42,351 nucleotides of DNA from positions 1-42,351 of the forward strand of contig JAIUMY010000017.1 in assembly GCA_022565335.1 (NCBI GenBank), written 5' to 3'. Below the pieces are notes generated by a model. It worked only from the letters and a program-made list of their open reading frames with translations, searched no databases and was not told the DNA's origin. Numbering within the stretch: position 1 is the first letter of the stretch; each line of letters begins with the position of its first letter. The translations under genes were made by a program, and so were the position numbers. This DNA comes from Opitutales bacterium. GTDB taxonomy: Bacteria > Verrucomicrobiota > Verrucomicrobiia > Opitutales > T3Sed10-336. Shown here one piece after another: positions 12,267-26,245 of this stretch.

Positions 12267-12329
12267 GAAGGGCCCCGCCGGGGGAGCGGACAAACAATCC
12301 CAGATGCACCCACCCGGCAGGAGGACAAC

Positions 12330-12494
12330 CGCCAAGAAGCCGCACCTCAACCTGACCATTCGAGCTCGGAGAGACCCTCGCCCTCCCAGGGATCGCACCC
12401 CAAAGGGCATGGGCATGTGTCCTTGCTTTAGGTGCGAAAACAGCCCCAAGGACAGGAATGTCCTTGCTCCTTATTGGCAAGAGTCCCAGAGGCC
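12330..12494. repeat. Composite interspersed repeat, copy 2
   Basis: This copy has the order A-B-C-D: CCGCACCTCAACC and ATTCGAGCTCGGAGAGACCC, then GGCATGTGTCCTTGC and TTTAGGTGCGAAAACAG, then one 41-nt-type C unit with the AAGGACA/TGTCCTT hairpin at about 12448-12465, then TCCCAGAGGCCGG. It differs from copy 1 by a GATCGCACCCCAAAGGGCAT insert in place of the GAACGTACCCGCC segment. It lies just after the photolyase gene in the 717-bp gap before ileS. Confidence 0.85.
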
Positions 12495-12567
12495 GGAAGG
12501 TCCCGCTGAGCTTTCGCGCGGTGACCTGTTGTATGTGCCCAGTCGGAACCGCCCAGTCGATGAACGT

Positions 12568-12782
12568 CCGCCAAGAGGCCGCACCTCAACCCAACCATTC
12601 GAGCTCGGAGAGACCCTCGCCCTCCCAGGGATCGCATCCCCCAAAGGGCATGGGCATGTGTCCTTGCTTTAGGTGCGAAAACAGCCCCCAAGGACAGGAA
12701 TGTCCTTGCTCCTTATTGGAAAACAGCCCCAAGGACAGGAATGTCCTTGCTCCTTACAGGCAACAGTCCCAGAGGCCGAACC
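12568..12782. repeat. Composite interspersed repeat, copy 3
   Basis: The order is A-B-C-C-D. It repeats CCGCACCTCAACC, ATTCGAGCTCGGAGAGACCC and TTTAGGTGCGAAAACAG, then two C units with AAGGACA/TGTCCTT hairpins (starting near 12687 and 12726), and ends CAGTCCCAGAGGCCGAA like copy 2. The number of C units differs among the three copies (two plus a remnant, one, two), which shows the 41-nt unit expands and contracts. Confidence 0.85.
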
Positions 12783-12834
12783 GGCCCAGAGAAAAGCGTT
12801 CCGGGGGCAAATTGGCCTTGGCAATCCTTTCATT

Positions 12835-12928
12835 ACCGCTTTGGTGGGAACCGGCAAAATCCCAATGTTTTCATTTGCCAAAGCGGTCCGCAGATTCTAC
12901 AGTCAAACCTTTTTATATGACCGCTTGG
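12835..12928 (+). promoter_or_regulatory. Candidate structured leader upstream of ileS
   Basis: ACCGCTTTGG at 12835-12844 is the exact reverse complement of CCAAAGCGGT at 12878-12887, giving a 10-bp stem. Inside it, TGGGA and TCCCA can form a 5-bp inner stem. Downstream, ACCGCTTGG at 12920-12928 could pair with the same CCAAAGCGGT apart from one bulge, so two exclusive folds exist. The ileS start is 55 bases further on. I see no T-box sequence and no T-run after a stem, so the mechanism is open. Confidence 0.4.
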
Positions 12929-12983
12929 GACGCCGGGACCGGCCCCAACAAGACACTGATGCCTAATAAGCAGTTTATCCGTA

Positions 12984-20393: not shown

Positions 20394-20455
20394 GGCAATG
20401 CGGGGTTTTATTTAGGCCTTTCTTTCTACTCGTTCTGAGGTATCCGGTCAATGTT

Positions 20456-20508
20456 CTTTTTCGGTTTTTCCTTAATATCGTATTTTTTATGAGGTAAAAA
20501 CCAAAAAG
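20456..20508 (+). promoter_or_regulatory. Inverted repeat and shared promoter motif upstream of the WYL regulator
   Basis: Arms CTTTTTCGGTTTTTCCT (20456-20472) and AGGTAAAAACCAAAAAG (20492-20508) are reverse complements apart from two one-base indels. In the centre and right arm lie AATATCGTATT (20474-20484) and ATGAGGTAAA (20489-20498). Both recur, in the same order relative to the gene, upstream of the MFS gene at 22747-22769. The dyad ends 72 bases before the regulator's ATG and is a good candidate operator for autoregulation. Confidence 0.5.
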
Positions 20509-20580
20509 AGTGCTCATGTGTTCATTTAATTCTTGCCTCTTTCCATGTCTTTCCCAAGGATTCGGAAAATCTTACTTACT

Positions 20581-21408
20581 ATGAATACTGAATTAGGTAA
20601 ATGGAGCGAACGTCAACGCCTGGCCTTTATCGAAAGAATGCTTTTCTGGAGAGGCTACATCAATCGCAAGGACGTCATTGATTACTTTGGGATATCCCCT
20701 CCCCAAGCGACCAATGATCTGGTGCATTACACCACTCTTAACCCGGAAGGCTGCCGCTACAACGTGCGCAAGCGCCGCTACGAAACAACGGATACCATGG
20801 AGCCTCGCCTTATCCATCCCGACTTCGGACGGGACACCGAATTCCTGGGCAGTCAGATAAGGCCCCAACCGGACATTCCCTTCATCCTCGAGCCTACCCT
20901 TCCCATAAGAACCGCCAGCATCCCGGTGGCCAGGGAACTTTGCCAGGCCGTCCACCGCAAACAATCCATTGAAATACAGTATTGGTCGGTAAACTCCGGA
21001 TCGGCCCTATGGCGGCGAATCACTCCCCGGGGATTTGCGCATGATGGCCTTCGCTGGCATGTCCGCGCCTGGTGCCACCAAAATGAGGATTTCCGGGATT
21101 TTGTCATCGGCCGCATGAAAGGCACCCGCGATCCCGAACCAAGTCCGGAAGCCGACCGCATTGATGATGATTGGGTATCGGAAGTTTGCCTGCACCTGCG
21201 CCCGAACCCGGCTGAGCAGGACAATGTTCGCAAAGCCATTGCCATGGACTACGGCATGAGAGCACAAAAGCTTACCTTACGGGTACCCCGTGCCATGCTG
21301 GTCTATACCGCTCGGCGAATGGGTTTCATAAAAGAACCTACCCCCGCTAACCTCCCCATGCTCAACGAGCTGAAACAGCTTGAATGGTACAAGTTGTCGA
21401 ATAAGTAA
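20581..21408 (+). CDS. WYL-domain transcriptional regulator, CapW/BrxR-like
   Basis: The protein is 275 residues with the three-part layout of CapW/BrxR repressors: winged HTH (about 9-75), WYL ligand domain (about 110-185) and a C-terminal dimer region (about 190-275). The opening WSERQRLAFIERMLFWRGYI, DYFGISPPQATNDLVHY and RRYETTDTMEPRLI match that family well. The WYL motif is replaced by RWH around 158-160 followed by VRAWC, as often in BrxR types. Relatives repress BREX or CBASS defence loci and sense nucleic-acid-like ligands; none of those genes is visible here. I start it at the ATG at 20581; ATG 20545 is also possible, and neither has a clear ribosome site. A dyad lies upstream and a terminator-like hairpin follows. 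Confidence 0.85.
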   Translation: MNTELGKWSERQRLAFIERMLFWRGYINRKDVIDYFGISPPQATNDLVHYTTLNPEGCRYNVRKRRYETTDTMEPRLIHPDFGRDTEFLGSQIRPQPDIPFILEPTLPIRTASIPVARELCQAVHRKQSIEIQYWSVNSGSALWRRITPRGFAHDGLRWHVRAWCHQNEDFRDFVIGRMKGTRDPEPSPEADRIDDDWVSEVCLHLRPNPAEQDNVRKAIAMDYGMRAQKLTLRVPRAMLVYTARRMGFIKEPTPANLPMLNELKQLEWYKLSNK

Positions 21409-21410
21409 CT

Positions 21411-21431
21411 AAATCCGAGTAAGGATTTTTT
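21411..21431 (+). terminator. Probable intrinsic terminator after the WYL gene
   Basis: AAATCC, six-base loop, GGATTT and a run of Ts (21426-21431) directly follow the stop codon. The stem is only 6 bp. A second hairpin, TGCCGCA/TGCGGCA at 21442-21467, follows and may help separate this gene from the convergent MFS gene. Confidence 0.5.
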
Positions 21432-21478
21432 GGGTCCCTCGTGCCGCAGCCACCCTGAAATGCGGCATTTAGGATAAA

Positions 21479-22723
21479 TCATTTCCTTTCACCGGCTTCT
21501 GACTCGCCGGTGAGCCCGTCGGTATTTTTTTGCTGATTCGGCAGGAAGAGCCAAAGCATGAAGCAGGAGACGGTCGTCAACAGACCCGCATAGAAATAGA
21601 TCGAAAGCAGACTGTTTTCCGCCAAGGAACCAGCCCACAGGTGCCCGACGACCCGTGAACTGCCGGCAATGGCCATGGTATAGAAACCCTGAATCGAGCT
21701 GCGGAAATGATCACCGGCTAAGCTGTTGAGGAAAAGAACCGGCCCGACTTGCAGAGCGATAACCACCATTCCGTGGAAAATCTGGCTGACAACGGCCATG
21801 CCGACCGTGGGAAATGCCGCCAGGAGAAACATTCGTAGCGCCGTCAAGGCCATGGCGATGACCAAAAGACGGCGAAGTCCCAGCTTCCGCAGGGCCCAAC
21901 CGAAGCCCAGAATGAAAACAATCTCCACCACCACACCAATATTGAAAACCAATCCTGCGGATCGCTCGCTGAGTCCAATTTCGCGAGTGAGGTAGAGAGG
22001 ATAAAACCCGAAGTACGCGGCCGACCCAAGATGAGCTAAAAACAGGGCTATGCCGATAACGACCATGCGGGGATTGGCGAAAACGCGAATGGCTTCCATC
22101 GTTGGCAGGGCTCGTTTTTCCCCTTTTTGTTGTTTCATTGCTGGGGCCGCCACGAAGGATGGCAACCGTAGAGTATTCAGGTATCCCAGTACCCCCACGA
22201 ACGCGGCGACATACAAAATGACCACCGTTGAGGCCCCCCACCAAAACAAAACGAATAAAAACAAGCTGGGGACGATGAATCCGATGGTGCCCCAAACCCG
22301 GACCTGATGGTAAGGCGTTTCCGGAAGACCTCTTTTCCTTCGCCCCTTTTGCACGGAAAAATTCAAACCGTCCTGCAACGGGATGACCGATACAAACAAT
22401 AACATGTGCAAACCGAGAAAAACAAAAGCGGCCCAGGGCGTTCCCCACCAAGCCAAGGCCAACATGCAGGCAGTCGATCCCAAAAAGATCCAGGATAAGA
22501 GCCTCTTTCCACCGAAACGGGAATCGGCCAAACCCGTGATCAGAAGCGGCGAAATGACGATGGCCATACTTGAGAGTGCCAGAAGTTGCCCGATAACACT
22601 CTCCCGCAGACCTACTTCCTCGCGTAGATAGATTACCAAATAGGGCAATAAACATCCGATAAAAGCATAGGATAGAAAGAACTGTGTTCTTACCGGATAA
22701 AAGTCCTGAAAGTAATTTTTCAT
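21479..22723 (-). CDS. MFS transporter (MFS_1-like / nucleoside-symporter-like)
   Basis: A 414-residue inner-membrane transporter with about twelve hydrophobic segments. Marks of the superfamily are GLADSRFGGKRLL between helices 2 and 3 and RVWGTIGFIVPSLFLF near helix 5, the latter seen in MFS_1-like and NupG-like proteins. The central loop (around residues 190-210) is basic and polar, as expected between the two six-helix halves. The C-terminal tail is hydrophilic. The substrate cannot be read from sequence; sugars or nucleosides are the common substrates of these subfamilies. ATG at 22723. The gene converges with the WYL regulator and shares a promoter motif with it, so the regulator may control it. 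Confidence 0.87.
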   Translation of the reverse strand: MKNYFQDFYPVRTQFFLSYAFIGCLLPYLVIYLREEVGLRESVIGQLLALSSMAIVISPLLITGLADSRFGGKRLLSWIFLGSTACMLALAWWGTPWAAFVFLGLHMLLFVSVIPLQDGLNFSVQKGRRKRGLPETPYHQVRVWGTIGFIVPSLFLFVLFWWGASTVVILYVAAFVGVLGYLNTLRLPSFVAAPAMKQQKGEKRALPTMEAIRVFANPRMVVIGIALFLAHLGSAAYFGFYPLYLTREIGLSERSAGLVFNIGVVVEIVFILGFGWALRKLGLRRLLVIAMALTALRMFLLAAFPTVGMAVVSQIFHGMVVIALQVGPVLFLNSLAGDHFRSSIQGFYTMAIAGSSRVVGHLWAGSLAENSLLSIYFYAGLLTTVSCFMLWLFLPNQQKNTDGLTGESEAGERK

Positions 22724-22746
22724 ACAAAAAAATTTATAAACCGCAA

Positions 22747-22773
22747 TTTACCTCATGGAATATCGTATTAATT
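22747..22773 (-). promoter_or_regulatory. Second copy of the shared motif, upstream of the MFS gene
   Basis: On the minus strand this reads TTAATACGATATT, then CC, then ATGAGGTAAA, and the MFS start codon follows 23 bases later. The plus strand shows the exact 11-mer AATATCGTATT (22759-22769), also at 20474-20484, and TTTACCTCAT (22747-22756), the reverse complement of ATGAGGTAAA at 20489-20498. Same order and similar spacing in front of both genes suggest a common regulator. Confidence 0.45.
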
Positions 22774-22785
22774 TTGTATAAAAGA

Positions 22786-22815
22786 AAAACCTCCCTACTG
22801 AAGGGAGGTTTTTTT
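22786..22815 (-). terminator. Intrinsic terminator of the coiled-coil/HTH gene
   Basis: A clean hairpin with arms AACCTCCC and GGGAGGTT and a 7-nt loop is flanked by A-runs on one side and T-runs on the other, so it can act on both strands. It lies 22 bases after the minus-strand gene ending at 22838, which is the gene it most likely serves. It also insulates the MFS promoter. Confidence 0.85.
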
Positions 22816-22837
22816 ATAAAAAAGAAAGATAAAAAAC

Positions 22838-23179
22838 TTAGGAGCGTTTTTTCACTAACCCTAAATCCTGTTTGATATTTTGCACGGAGGCCGTGGATAT
22901 ACCGAATTCCCGGGCCACTTGACTTCCACTGGCGCCGCCCCGGAGGGCCTCCCCTATTTTTTCCCGCAGTTCGGGGGTGATCCGTCCCCGGCCTTTCCCT
23001 TTGGTGGCGCTTTTCCGGCCAGCAGCCGCTTCCAGCTCGCTGATCAATTCATCGATACTGTTGAGCCCGACCTGCTTATGCAGGCTCAGCAATTCGGCTT
23101 TGCGCTGTTCGGCGGCCTGCTTTTCGAGCTCTGCCAGTTCTTGTTTTTTTCTTTCAATTTCTTGGTGTATGTTGTCCAT
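22838..23179 (-). CDS. Small H-NS-like coiled-coil protein with C-terminal HTH
   Basis: The protein has 113 residues. Residues 1-52 are a strongly predicted coiled coil (EIERKKQELAELEKQAAEQRKAELL, in the style of the H-NS/MvaT oligomerisation region). Residues 55-66 are a basic linker, RKSATKGKGRGR, resembling the DNA-contacting GRGR of H-NS. Residues 68-104 form a helix-turn-helix of the resolvase/Hin type (ITPELREKIGEALRGG, SQVAREFGISTASVQNIKQ). The combination suggests an oligomerising DNA-binding protein, perhaps a nucleoid protein or silencer; this is inference. I start it at the ATG at 23179; the longer frame adds a hydrophobic stretch over the promoter. A perfect palindrome lies upstream and a strong terminator downstream, so it is its own transcription unit. 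Confidence 0.8.
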   Translation of the reverse strand: MDNIHQEIERKKQELAELEKQAAEQRKAELLSLHKQVGLNSIDELISELEAAAGRKSATKGKGRGRITPELREKIGEALRGGASGSQVAREFGISTASVQNIKQDLGLVKKRS

Positions 23180-23229
23180 AGGAAAATTCAATAATGGGAT
23201 AATTGCAGAAGTAAGCAAATCAAAATGTA

Positions 23230-23248
23230 GATTTACCATTGGTAAATC
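23230..23248. promoter_or_regulatory. Perfect 19-bp palindrome upstream of the coiled-coil/HTH gene
   Basis: GATTTACC, ATT and GGTAAATC form a perfect 8-bp dyad with a 3-bp centre, the geometry of a dimer operator. It sits 51-69 bases before the ATG at 23179. Its core GGTAAA also occurs in the ATGAGGTAAA motifs before the WYL and MFS genes. Autoregulation or shared control is inferred. Confidence 0.6.
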
Positions 23249-23297
23249 CCGATAAAACGACCCTTCCCGAAAACTTTAAACCAGGAAGCTTATAAAT

Positions 23298-24542
23298 CTA
23301 CACGTTTGTCATGGATTCCAGTTCGTTGACAACGGCTCGGGGTCCGTTTTCCTTCTCTAAGTGCCGGGCAATTTCGGTCGCCCTGGTTTGATAAAGCTGA
23401 TCTTTTTCCAGAGTTGCCAAGGCTTGGGGCAGTTCCTCCGGCCAAGTTTTGCGGGAAAGCCCAAACCCTACTCCCAAACGCTCGATTTGGGCCGCAAAAA
23501 AAGGTTGGTCGGCAATATGGGGAACAATGATTTGCGGTTTCCCGGAGTGCAGGACGCTGGCGGTAGTCCCGGCCCCACCGTGGTGGACCACCGCGCTGGC
23601 ATGAGCAAAGAGATGGTCATGACTGACCGGCCCGACCAATTTCACATGGGGTTGCGGCGTTGGCAGGGCGAAACCACTCCAGCCAGCCTGCAGGATCACT
23701 TTCCTGCCCGGGGGCCAATGATCAAGAAACCGGGCCATGGTTTTGTCCGCCTCCGCATCGACCATACTTCCAAAGGTTATCACCGGAACCTTTGCCCCTC
23801 CGGTAAAGTTTCGGATTTCCTCATCCAAGGAAACCTCGTCGGCGTTTTGCCAACGACAATAGCCGACAAAACGATACCGTTGGGGATCCTTCTCTTCTCC
23901 TTGTCGTAACAGCGGAGAAACCCCAATGAACACCTTCTGCGCCGGGGCGGAAAAAAAGTCGCGAACCGTTCGTCCGGCGAAGGGACTGTCCTTCAGCGCC
24001 GAAGCCAATAATCGCGCCATCACCAGGTCGGCCGTTTTCCAAAGAAAGGCGGCCCACCACCTTCGCCATGCCCCGGGAAACCATGGGGGCAGCGAAGGGG
24101 TGCCATAAGGAGCACGGTCAAGCAAAGGCACGGTATTGGGGGCAAAGGCCATCGCGGCCTCAGGTTTACCCTCCATCTCTGCGGGCAAAAATTTGCCCAG
24201 GGGAAACAAATAGGAAGACACCACGACATCGGCTTCTTCGACCAAGGGGCGGACCACCGCCAGACTTTCCTCCAGATACGGAGCCATCGTCCGATACAGG
24301 TATTGCAACTGACGGGCAGGGCCGCGGTGGTCATACATCCCCGCCATAATACGGGAAAGGTCCTCCTGCTGCCAATGCGGAGGCAAGGACACAAATGCAG
24401 CACCCGCCCTCTCAATCTCCTCCTGAAAAACCGGAAAGGTAGCGAAAGTCACCACATGGCCGTTTTCTCTCAGAGCCCGGGCGACGGCAATAAGCGGAAA
24501 AATATCCCCGGTGGAGCCTTGGGAAGTTATAAAAACCTTCAT
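23298..24542 (-). CDS. GT1-family (UDP-glycosyltransferase-like) glycosyltransferase
   Basis: The 414-residue protein has the GT-B fold pattern of the MGT/sterol glucosyltransferase and RhlB group. The N-terminal acceptor domain starts MKVFITSQGSTGDIFPLIAVARAL. The C-terminal nucleotide-sugar domain has VITFGSM at about 254-260, VKLVGPVSHDHLFAHASAVV and the signature HHGGAGTT at 320-327, then PQIIVPHIADQPFFAAQI. Acceptors in this group are lipids, sterols, carotenoids or small hydrophobic metabolites. A CrtI-type desaturase lies 4 kb away, so a carotenoid acceptor is possible but unproven. The start codon overlaps the stop of the pyrophosphatase gene (ATGA), so the two are translated together. 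Confidence 0.87.
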   Translation of the reverse strand: MKVFITSQGSTGDIFPLIAVARALRENGHVVTFATFPVFQEEIERAGAAFVSLPPHWQQEDLSRIMAGMYDHRGPARQLQYLYRTMAPYLEESLAVVRPLVEEADVVVSSYLFPLGKFLPAEMEGKPEAAMAFAPNTVPLLDRAPYGTPSLPPWFPGAWRRWWAAFLWKTADLVMARLLASALKDSPFAGRTVRDFFSAPAQKVFIGVSPLLRQGEEKDPQRYRFVGYCRWQNADEVSLDEEIRNFTGGAKVPVITFGSMVDAEADKTMARFLDHWPPGRKVILQAGWSGFALPTPQPHVKLVGPVSHDHLFAHASAVVHHGGAGTTASVLHSGKPQIIVPHIADQPFFAAQIERLGVGFGLSRKTWPEELPQALATLEKDQLYQTRATEIARHLEKENGPRAVVNELESMTNV

Positions 24543-26245
24543 GGCTCCTTCGCCTTGGACTCCTCCGAATAAGACATCGGGTCGGGCAGACTATTCAACA
24601 CACTGGTAATAAACGGCACCAATTGCTTTTTCCGACTGACCACCCCTTGCAGGTCGAAAATATCCGGAGCATAGGCCTGTGGATATTGAATGCGACCAAT
24701 GAAATCCTTGTCCCCTTTCACCGCCAAAAGGGAATTTTGGGTGTTGATATCGGTAACCAGCAAGGCGGAGAAATGCAGATTTTCAGCTTGTCGGGTTTCC
24801 TCTAAAGCCCCCAGGAGCGCTTCCCGGTGCTCCAGGAAATTTCCATAGCCCAACTCCTCCACCTGCGAGAGGGAGAATTTCCAGGAACGCTCGTGGTATT
24901 TCTTGAAATCCGAACGAACCACCTCCTGGGGACTTTGCGACAAAATAATTGACCCCGAACTGAAGATCAGGTCGGCCAATTCATCGCGGGATACCCCCGC
25001 CAGCGATTCCAGCCAGGTCAGGATACGGTCGTCCTTGAGGGTGGCGGTCGGACTTTTCAAATTCAAGGTGTCGGAGATAATCCCTCCCATCAACAAGCCG
25101 GCAATAGAGGCTTCGGGCTCACAATTCTCCCGACGATAAAAATCCGCGATGATGGTGCTGGTGCTACCCACCGGCTCATTCATAAAGAGAATCGGAGAGG
25201 AGGTGTGGAGATTGCCGAGGCGATGATGATCAACAATTTCCTGAATATTGACTTGGTCCGCTCCGGGCACGGCTTGGCCCAGTTCATTATGGTCCACCAA
25301 AATAATATCCGTTGCGGTAGGCTTCAAAAGGTCGGTACGGGTGAAAATACCTTTCAATCGTTTGGCCTCATCCACCACAAAAAAGGCCGGTTGGGCCATT
25401 CCGGCGGTTCGCCGGCGTGCCTCCTCGACACTTTCATCGCCATGAAAGAAGACCACTTCGGAGGAAATCAACCGACTGATCGAGGAAGCGGAACGAATAA
25501 TCCAGGCCGTCGTCGCACTGTCGTAGCGACTGATGACCAGACTCACCCCCTTTTTTTGCGCATCTGCCAAAATTTCCGGCTCCACCTTCAAATCTCCGGT
25601 AATCACCAGCAGGCGCACCCCATATTGAATGGAGCGCTGCTGAATATCCCACCGGTCTCCCACAATTATGATACTTTTGCTGGGATCGACATCCTCAATT
25701 TCCGAAAATTTCCCAAAAGACCGGACATCCATTGCGCCCACCCGGACATAGTAATCGTCGACCATTTCCTCATCCTGGCTGCACAAAACTTCCGCATCGA
25801 GAGCCCGTACAATGTTGGCCACCGAAGTATGAACCCGTCTCATTTCCTTGGGTTCACGTAATTTGGGAATAAAATATTCTCCCAACTGAAAGACGGAAAC
25901 CATTCCCTCCACTTTCTTATCGGCCCCCACGACCGGGAGCACCCGCACGTCATGACGGTCAATCAAGCTGAGTGCCTCGTGACAGGTGGCTTCCGGTTCG
26001 ACCGAAACCACCTCGCGTACCATGATGTCCTTCACCCGCGGGGTTACATCACCGATAAAGTCGGGCAACTTTTGGCCAAACCGGTTGAGAATGGCCTCAA
26101 TGCGGGCATTGGAATTTCCACAACGACAAGAGAGGTGTGGTCGGTCGGAGAACCGATTTTTAAAATCTGCATAGGCAATTGCTGCACAGATTGAATCCGC
26201 GTCGGGATTGCGATGTCCAATAATAAGAACGGGATTTGATGCCAT
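24539..26245 (-). CDS. ppaC: Manganese-dependent inorganic pyrophosphatase with CBS-DRTGG insert
   Basis: Family II pyrophosphatase hydrolyses pyrophosphate using Mn/Co. The 568-residue protein is the long regulated form. The DHH domain is interrupted: IIGHRNPDADSI at 8-19 gives the first metal residues, then a CBS motif (about 72-130), a DRTGG-like domain (about 140-255) and a second CBS motif (about 258-308), and the DHH domain resumes with LVDHNE at 316-321 and VDHHRLG at 338-344. The C-terminal DHHA2 domain ends with SRKKQ at 537-541, which binds the phosphates. CBS inserts in this family bind adenine nucleotides and tune activity. ATG at 26245. It is the first gene of a pair with the glycosyltransferase, whose reactions release nucleotide leaving groups. 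Confidence 0.94.
   Translation of the reverse strand: MASNPVLIIGHRNPDADSICAAIAYADFKNRFSDRPHLSCRCGNSNARIEAILNRFGQKLPDFIGDVTPRVKDIMVREVVSVEPEATCHEALSLIDRHDVRVLPVVGADKKVEGMVSVFQLGEYFIPKLREPKEMRRVHTSVANIVRALDAEVLCSQDEEMVDDYYVRVGAMDVRSFGKFSEIEDVDPSKSIIIVGDRWDIQQRSIQYGVRLLVITGDLKVEPEILADAQKKGVSLVISRYDSATTAWIIRSASSISRLISSEVVFFHGDESVEEARRRTAGMAQPAFFVVDEAKRLKGIFTRTDLLKPTATDIILVDHNELGQAVPGADQVNIQEIVDHHRLGNLHTSSPILFMNEPVGSTSTIIADFYRRENCEPEASIAGLLMGGIISDTLNLKSPTATLKDDRILTWLESLAGVSRDELADLIFSSGSIILSQSPQEVVRSDFKKYHERSWKFSLSQVEELGYGNFLEHREALLGALEETRQAENLHFSALLVTDINTQNSLLAVKGDKDFIGRIQYPQAYAPDIFDLQGVVSRKKQLVPFITSVLNSLPDPMSYSEESKAKEP

What the first reader, a model, noticed from the sequence alone, without database searches (positions are those of the whole stretch)
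20456..22773. WYL regulator and convergent MFS transporter share a promoter motif: a candidate undescribed regulon
Seen: AATATCGTATT occurs at 20474-20484 (before the WYL gene) and 22759-22769 (before the MFS gene). ATGAGGTAAA occurs at 20489-20498 and, on the minus strand, at 22756-22747. In each promoter the near-palindromic AATA..CG..TATT precedes ATGAGGTAAA by 2-4 bases, pointing toward its gene. The plus-strand copy sits in a 53-bp inverted repeat. CapW/BrxR-type WYL repressors bind dyads before their own gene. Inference: the regulator controls itself and the transporter, giving a ligand-sensing export/import module rather than a defence locus. The motif also contains ATGAGGTAA, a Met-Arg-stop mini-frame, probably coincidental.
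Basis: partly seen in the sequence, partly recalled or inferred. Interest (0 to 1): 0.7.

Follow-up and report, generated by a model that had tools for sequence, protein, structure and literature searches.

The report
Orphan CapW-like regulator beside MFS transporter
A bacterial gene switch whose relatives usually guard anti-virus systems sits here beside an unrelated transporter gene; the two control regions share two rare short DNA words, but the closest sister species lacks them in front of the switch gene, so the idea that the switch controls the transporter remains an unproven lead.

Summary
AATATCGTATT and ATGAGGTAAA lie exactly where stated before both genes. They are rare: a relaxed two-part pattern hits only three times in the 3.29-Mb genome, two of them these. 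Two nearby shared 10-mers arise in 26 of 50,000 shuffled copies of the two promoters.

The regulator is a clear CapW/BrxR-family WYL protein. In the only same-genus relative its DNA-binding domain is 69/70 identical and the gene order is the same, but the words are degraded (9/11 and 6/10 bases) and the inverted repeat is gone. The best-conserved stretch of the promoter lies just downstream, at 20506-20538. That relative's contig ends inside the transporter gene, so the transporter promoter cannot be compared.

New here: six related regulators in other genera of the order (45-54% identical) lie next to CRISPR-Cas operons (I-C, I-E, I-G), while this genome has no Cas1 and no Cas3 above cut-off. 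Best read as an orphan CapW/BrxR repressor, probably autoregulated, with the MFS gene a plausible, unproven second target. New member of a known kind; modest interest.

The parts
20581..21408 (+). WYL-domain transcription regulator, CapW/BrxR family (275 aa; alternative in-frame ATG at 20545)
   Evidence: PF13280 1.4e-11; phmmer to S. maltophilia CapW 7tb6 1.7e-34, BrxR 7t8k 1.1e-26
20455..20509 (.). imperfect inverted repeat before the WYL gene; candidate autoregulatory operator
   Evidence: z -3.9; not kept in G001 (z -0.34)
20474..20484 (+). AATATCGTATT (short dyad, 4+4 bp)
   Evidence: 9 of 11 bases kept in G001, dyad broken
20489..20498 (+). ATGAGGTAAA, part of the right arm of the inverted repeat
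   Evidence: 6 of 10 bases kept in G001
20506..20538 (+). nearly invariant 33-bp block (GTGCTCATGTGTTCATTTAATTCTTG...), likely core promoter/leader of the WYL gene
   Evidence: 33-base perfect run in the alignment to G001 against 76% over the whole intergenic region
21479..22723 (-). MFS_1-like / nucleoside-H+-symporter-like transporter, convergent with the WYL gene
   Evidence: PF12832 3e-39, PF03825 3.2e-30; convergent MFS end also present in G001 at 87%
22747..22756 (-). ATGAGGTAAA before the MFS gene
22759..22769 (-). AATACGATATT (AATATCGTATT on +) before the MFS gene
22785..22813 (-). terminator-like hairpin that separates the MFS promoter from the upstream gene

Best explanation
An orphan CapW/BrxR-family WYL repressor (winged HTH - WYL - WCX) that most likely binds as a dimer upstream of its own gene, represses itself, and lets go when its WYL domain senses a ligand (inferred from the family). 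It belongs to a lineage whose members in other genera of the order mostly sit beside cas operons, and in this genus it is uncoupled from them. The nearby convergent MFS transporter gene carries the same rare two-word element within its roughly 64-bp promoter and is a plausible second target. Shown: family, gene order, rarity of the shared words, lack of conservation in the sister species at the WYL promoter. Inferred: DNA binding, autorepression, ligand control, control of the MFS gene (I give the last about 0.35).
For: Homology to CapW and BrxR over about 240 residues. Related WYL proteins (45-54% identical) beside type I-G, I-E and I-C cas operons. No Cas1 and no Cas3 above cut-off in the window's genome. 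Same WYL/MFS neighbourhood in G001. Rare double word in both promoters only. Strong inverted repeat before the WYL gene that recalls the stem-loop with an operator at its tip before Acinetobacter brxR (PMC9122589).
Against: In G001 (DNA-binding domain 69/70 identical) the words and the inverted repeat are degraded while neighbouring bases are invariant. The MFS copy has no symmetric second half-site (read from the sequence). MFS homologues occur in family members where no WYL orthologue was found. A plain alignment of the two promoters is not significant (5% of shuffles).
Confidence: 0.45

Rival explanations
1. The shared words are a chance similarity between two AT-rich promoters; the WYL protein regulates only itself, through the conserved block at 20506-20538 or nearby, and the MFS neighbour is unrelated.
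For: Words not conserved in G001 although the block beside them is. Local alignment score reached by 5% of shuffles; 12.6% of shuffles share some 10-mer. Convergent genes carry no strong expectation of co-regulation.
Against: The double word is rare genome-wide and in shuffles (26 of 50,000).
Confidence: 0.4
2. The regulator is a remnant of, or trans-acting controller for, a CRISPR-Cas system: it still controls cas genes elsewhere in relatives such as G001 and has lost its main target in this species.
For: G001 has a type I-C-like cas operon with no WYL gene beside it, and its cas3 promoter carries AATATTTTCTATGATAAT, matching the WYL/cas3 intergenic region of G029. The pattern TTATCATAGAAANTATT has one exact hit in each of these two genomes and no exact hit in five others. 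A motif built only from WYL promoters of another genus scores that promoter at p 0.005.
Against: G001's own WYL promoter does not carry a good copy. G029 and G001 both have I-C-type cas operons, so the match may be shared ancestry of cas promoters. The pattern was derived from these two sites.
Confidence: 0.15
3. The shared element is the site of a different transcription factor that controls both genes.
For: Non-conservation despite a nearly identical DNA-binding domain fits a site not read by the WYL protein.
Against: The element was found at only these two promoters in the genome, which flank a regulator gene; no other candidate factor was identified.
Confidence: 0.1

Closest known systems
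CapW (WYL repressor of CBASS operons; S. maltophilia 7tb6, P. aeruginosa, E. coli)
   Same: wHTH-WYL-WCX protein, homologous over about 240 residues; an inverted repeat lies before its own gene
   Different: no CBASS or other recognised defence gene beside it here; neighbour is an MFS transporter; binding not tested
BrxR (WYL repressor of BREX loci; Acinetobacter 7t8k, E. fergusonii)
   Same: homologous protein; Acinetobacter brxR also has a long stem-loop with a pseudo-palindrome before the gene (PMC9122589); about half of BrxR-family members are not beside known defence genes in the downstream survey (PMC9122601)
   Different: no BREX genes; the candidate operator is not conserved in the sister species
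Sll7009, WYL negative regulator of type I-D CRISPR-Cas in Synechocystis
   Same: precedent for WYL proteins that repress cas genes (PMC4012209), as the cas-linked Opitutales relatives probably do
   Different: the window's copy has no cas genes; orthology to Sll7009 not tested

Membership tests
CapW/BrxR-family WYL regulators | sequence homology over the wHTH, WYL and WCX regions | tested here: met
   phmmer 1.7e-34 to CapW over residues 7-249, 1.1e-26 to BrxR; PF13280
CapW/BrxR-family WYL regulators | palindromic operator upstream of its own gene, near the promoter | tested here: inconclusive
   inverted repeat 20455-20509, z -3.9, but not kept in G001
CapW/BrxR-family WYL regulators | linkage to a phage defence system (found for about half of BrxR homologues, so typical rather than defining) | tested here: not met
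   no PADLOC hit in ten nearby proteins other than the WYL itself; no Cas1 and no Cas3 above cut-off in the genome
CapW/BrxR-family WYL regulators | homodimer, DNA binding, repression relieved through the WYL domain | not testable with these tools
   needs purified protein and reporter assays
   G001: 9/11 and 6/10 bases, against a 33-base perfect run just downstream
   G001 contig ends inside the MFS gene; no match to the upstream region elsewhere in G001

The most novel reading that the evidence does not exclude
A CRISPR-linked CapW/BrxR-type repressor was detached from its defence operon and rewired to control a membrane transporter through a newly evolved two-word operator in this species.
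Probability: 0.2. Interest if true: 0.5.

Novelty: new member of a known kind. Interest (0 to 1): 0.3.

Why it matters
About half of the CapW/BrxR-family regulators surveyed in PMC9122601 had no known downstream defence target, and what such orphans do is open. Here is a tractable case: an orphan with one obvious candidate target and a sister species to compare, in a bacterial order where related regulators flank cas operons of several types. If the MFS link were shown, it would be a concrete example of an immune regulator that took on a metabolic or transport gene.

Tried and rejected
AATANNNTATTNNNNATGAGGTAAA with 3 mismatches gave only the WYL site and two poor hits. Pairwise alignment of the window's WYL promoter with orthologous promoters found no convincing shared element beyond G001 (best was G028, p 0.014 uncorrected). 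A motif from five WYL promoters of one other genus (TAAAAAGT-N10-TCATAAAAAGT) fits the window's WYL promoter only marginally (p 0.05 for one of four versions) and the MFS promoter not at all. By eye I thought GTGCTC...TGTTTA joined the window's conserved block to cas-linked promoters; alignment statistics did not support this. The simple sigma-70 scan found no promoter in the region. Structure prediction was not run: the family is clear from sequence.

Full report
What was claimed and what is there. The inverted repeat before the WYL gene is real (arms 20455-20472 and 20492-20509) and folds better than all 200 shuffles (z -3.9). The WYL gene starts at 20581 (an in-frame ATG at 20545 is possible); the MFS gene runs 22723-21479 on -.

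Is it more than chance? The whole genome (3.29 Mb, 196 contigs) has three matches to AATANNNTATTN{0,12}GAGGTAA: the two reported and one inside a coding sequence. In 442 kb of this genome AATATCGTATT occurs only at these two places, and ATGAGGTAAA four times, intergenic only here. When both promoters are shuffled with dinucleotides kept, two non-trivial shared 10-mers lying close together arise in 26 of 50,000 trials; among 15,931 real intergenic pairs ten show it, most of them involving what look like dispersed repeats. A plain gapped local alignment is less impressive, reached by 5% of shuffles. With about 190 promoter pairs in the window and words chosen after the fact, I read this as suggestive, not proof.

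Conservation. The nearest relative (G001, same genus; apparently GenBank contig JAFIGF010000041, Opitutales) has the same gene order on the left side of the window and the convergent MFS gene. Its WYL protein is 87% identical, with 69 of the first 70 residues identical. Yet its promoter reads AATATCTTAAT and ATTATATCAA where the window has the two words (9/11 and 6/10), and its inverted repeat is lost (z -0.34), while 33 aligned bases beginning at about 20506 are perfectly kept against 76% over the whole intergenic region. A DNA-binding domain this similar should read the same site, so the exact words are unlikely to be an old, selected operator; a degenerate or recently evolved site remains possible. 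G001's contig ends inside the MFS gene, and the window's MFS upstream region has no match elsewhere in G001, so the MFS promoter cannot be compared.

What the regulator is. It matches CapW and BrxR structures by sequence over about 240 residues. The searches found related proteins (45-54% identical) in other genera of the order next to cas operons: type I-G (G028, G039, one copy in G054), I-E (the other copy in G054) and I-C (G029), with cas proteins confirmed by PADLOC models, and in G301 beside a cas7-like/cas3-like set recognised by eye. More distant ones (34-35%) lie beside Cas12a, Cas9 and a Druantia/Dpd-like pair, and others, by eye, beside a Wadjet-like and a restriction-like locus. Further out in the class many copies have no obvious defence neighbour, in keeping with the published figure that about 48% of BrxR homologues lie upstream of known defence genes (PMC9122601). 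The window's genome, 92% complete, has no Cas1 and no Cas3 above cut-off, and ten nearby proteins gave no PADLOC hit except the WYL protein itself. So this copy is an orphan, which is common for the family.

The transporter. It belongs to the MFS_1-like / nucleoside-H+ symporter group with no curated NCBIfam cut-off reached. Its substrate is unknown. Homologues in the same family of bacteria (39-46%) occur in genomes where no WYL orthologue was found (G004-G007; G004 has only a short weak WYL-domain match), and in G002 and G028 both genes exist on different contigs. In G002 it lies near vitamin B12/iron-type ABC transporter genes, and in G028 near an AraC regulator and a GH4 glycosidase. Dependence on the WYL protein is therefore not general.

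How it most likely works. By family precedent (CapW and BrxR bind palindromes near their promoters and repress; PMC9122588, PMC9122589, PMC9122601), the protein probably binds upstream of its own gene and is released by a ligand in the WYL domain. The inverted repeat recalls the stem-loop with the operator at its tip before Acinetobacter brxR. Control of the MFS gene through the shared words is plausible, at about one chance in three; chance similarity is about as likely. A third option, trans control of cas genes, is hinted at in G001, whose cas operon has no WYL gene beside it but carries an element matching the WYL/cas3 intergenic region of G029; that match may simply reflect related cas promoters.

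Verdict. Observation confirmed; regulon interpretation partly supported and not established; protein and layout are a new member of a known kind.

Noticed in passing
L063, L065, L066, L067, L068, L069, L070 (related loci): CapW/BrxR-like WYL genes of Opitutales lie beside cas operons of several types (I-G, I-E, I-C, Cas12a, Cas9), suggesting a regulator class shared across CRISPR types in this order.
   Followed up: partly
L095:3382-3398 and L067:8851-8867: The cas3 promoter of G001 (no WYL gene beside it) and the WYL/cas3 intergenic region of G029 share AATA[GT]TTTCTATGATAA[CT]T in otherwise dissimilar promoters; possible operator acting in trans.
   Followed up: partly
L066:8169-8436 and corresponding regions of L065, L068, L077, L102 (genus g35): Five WYL promoters of one genus, four of them beside cas genes, share TCATAAAAA preceded 18 bp upstream by a TAAAA-containing repeat.
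   Followed up: partly
window 12267-12983: Intergenic region with repeats containing the palindromic unit CAAGGACAGGAATGTCCTTGC; parts of it recur in other intergenic regions of this genome, and its length differs in G001.
   Followed up: no
window 20530-20581: The WYL frame is open upstream of the assigned start in both this genome and G001, with an in-frame ATG at 20545; the true start is uncertain.
   Followed up: no
window 22838-23239: Small protein (133 aa) with a weak match to a transposase helix-turn-helix domain, just upstream of the MFS gene; the DNA from 22724 to 24600 has no match in G001.
   Followed up: no
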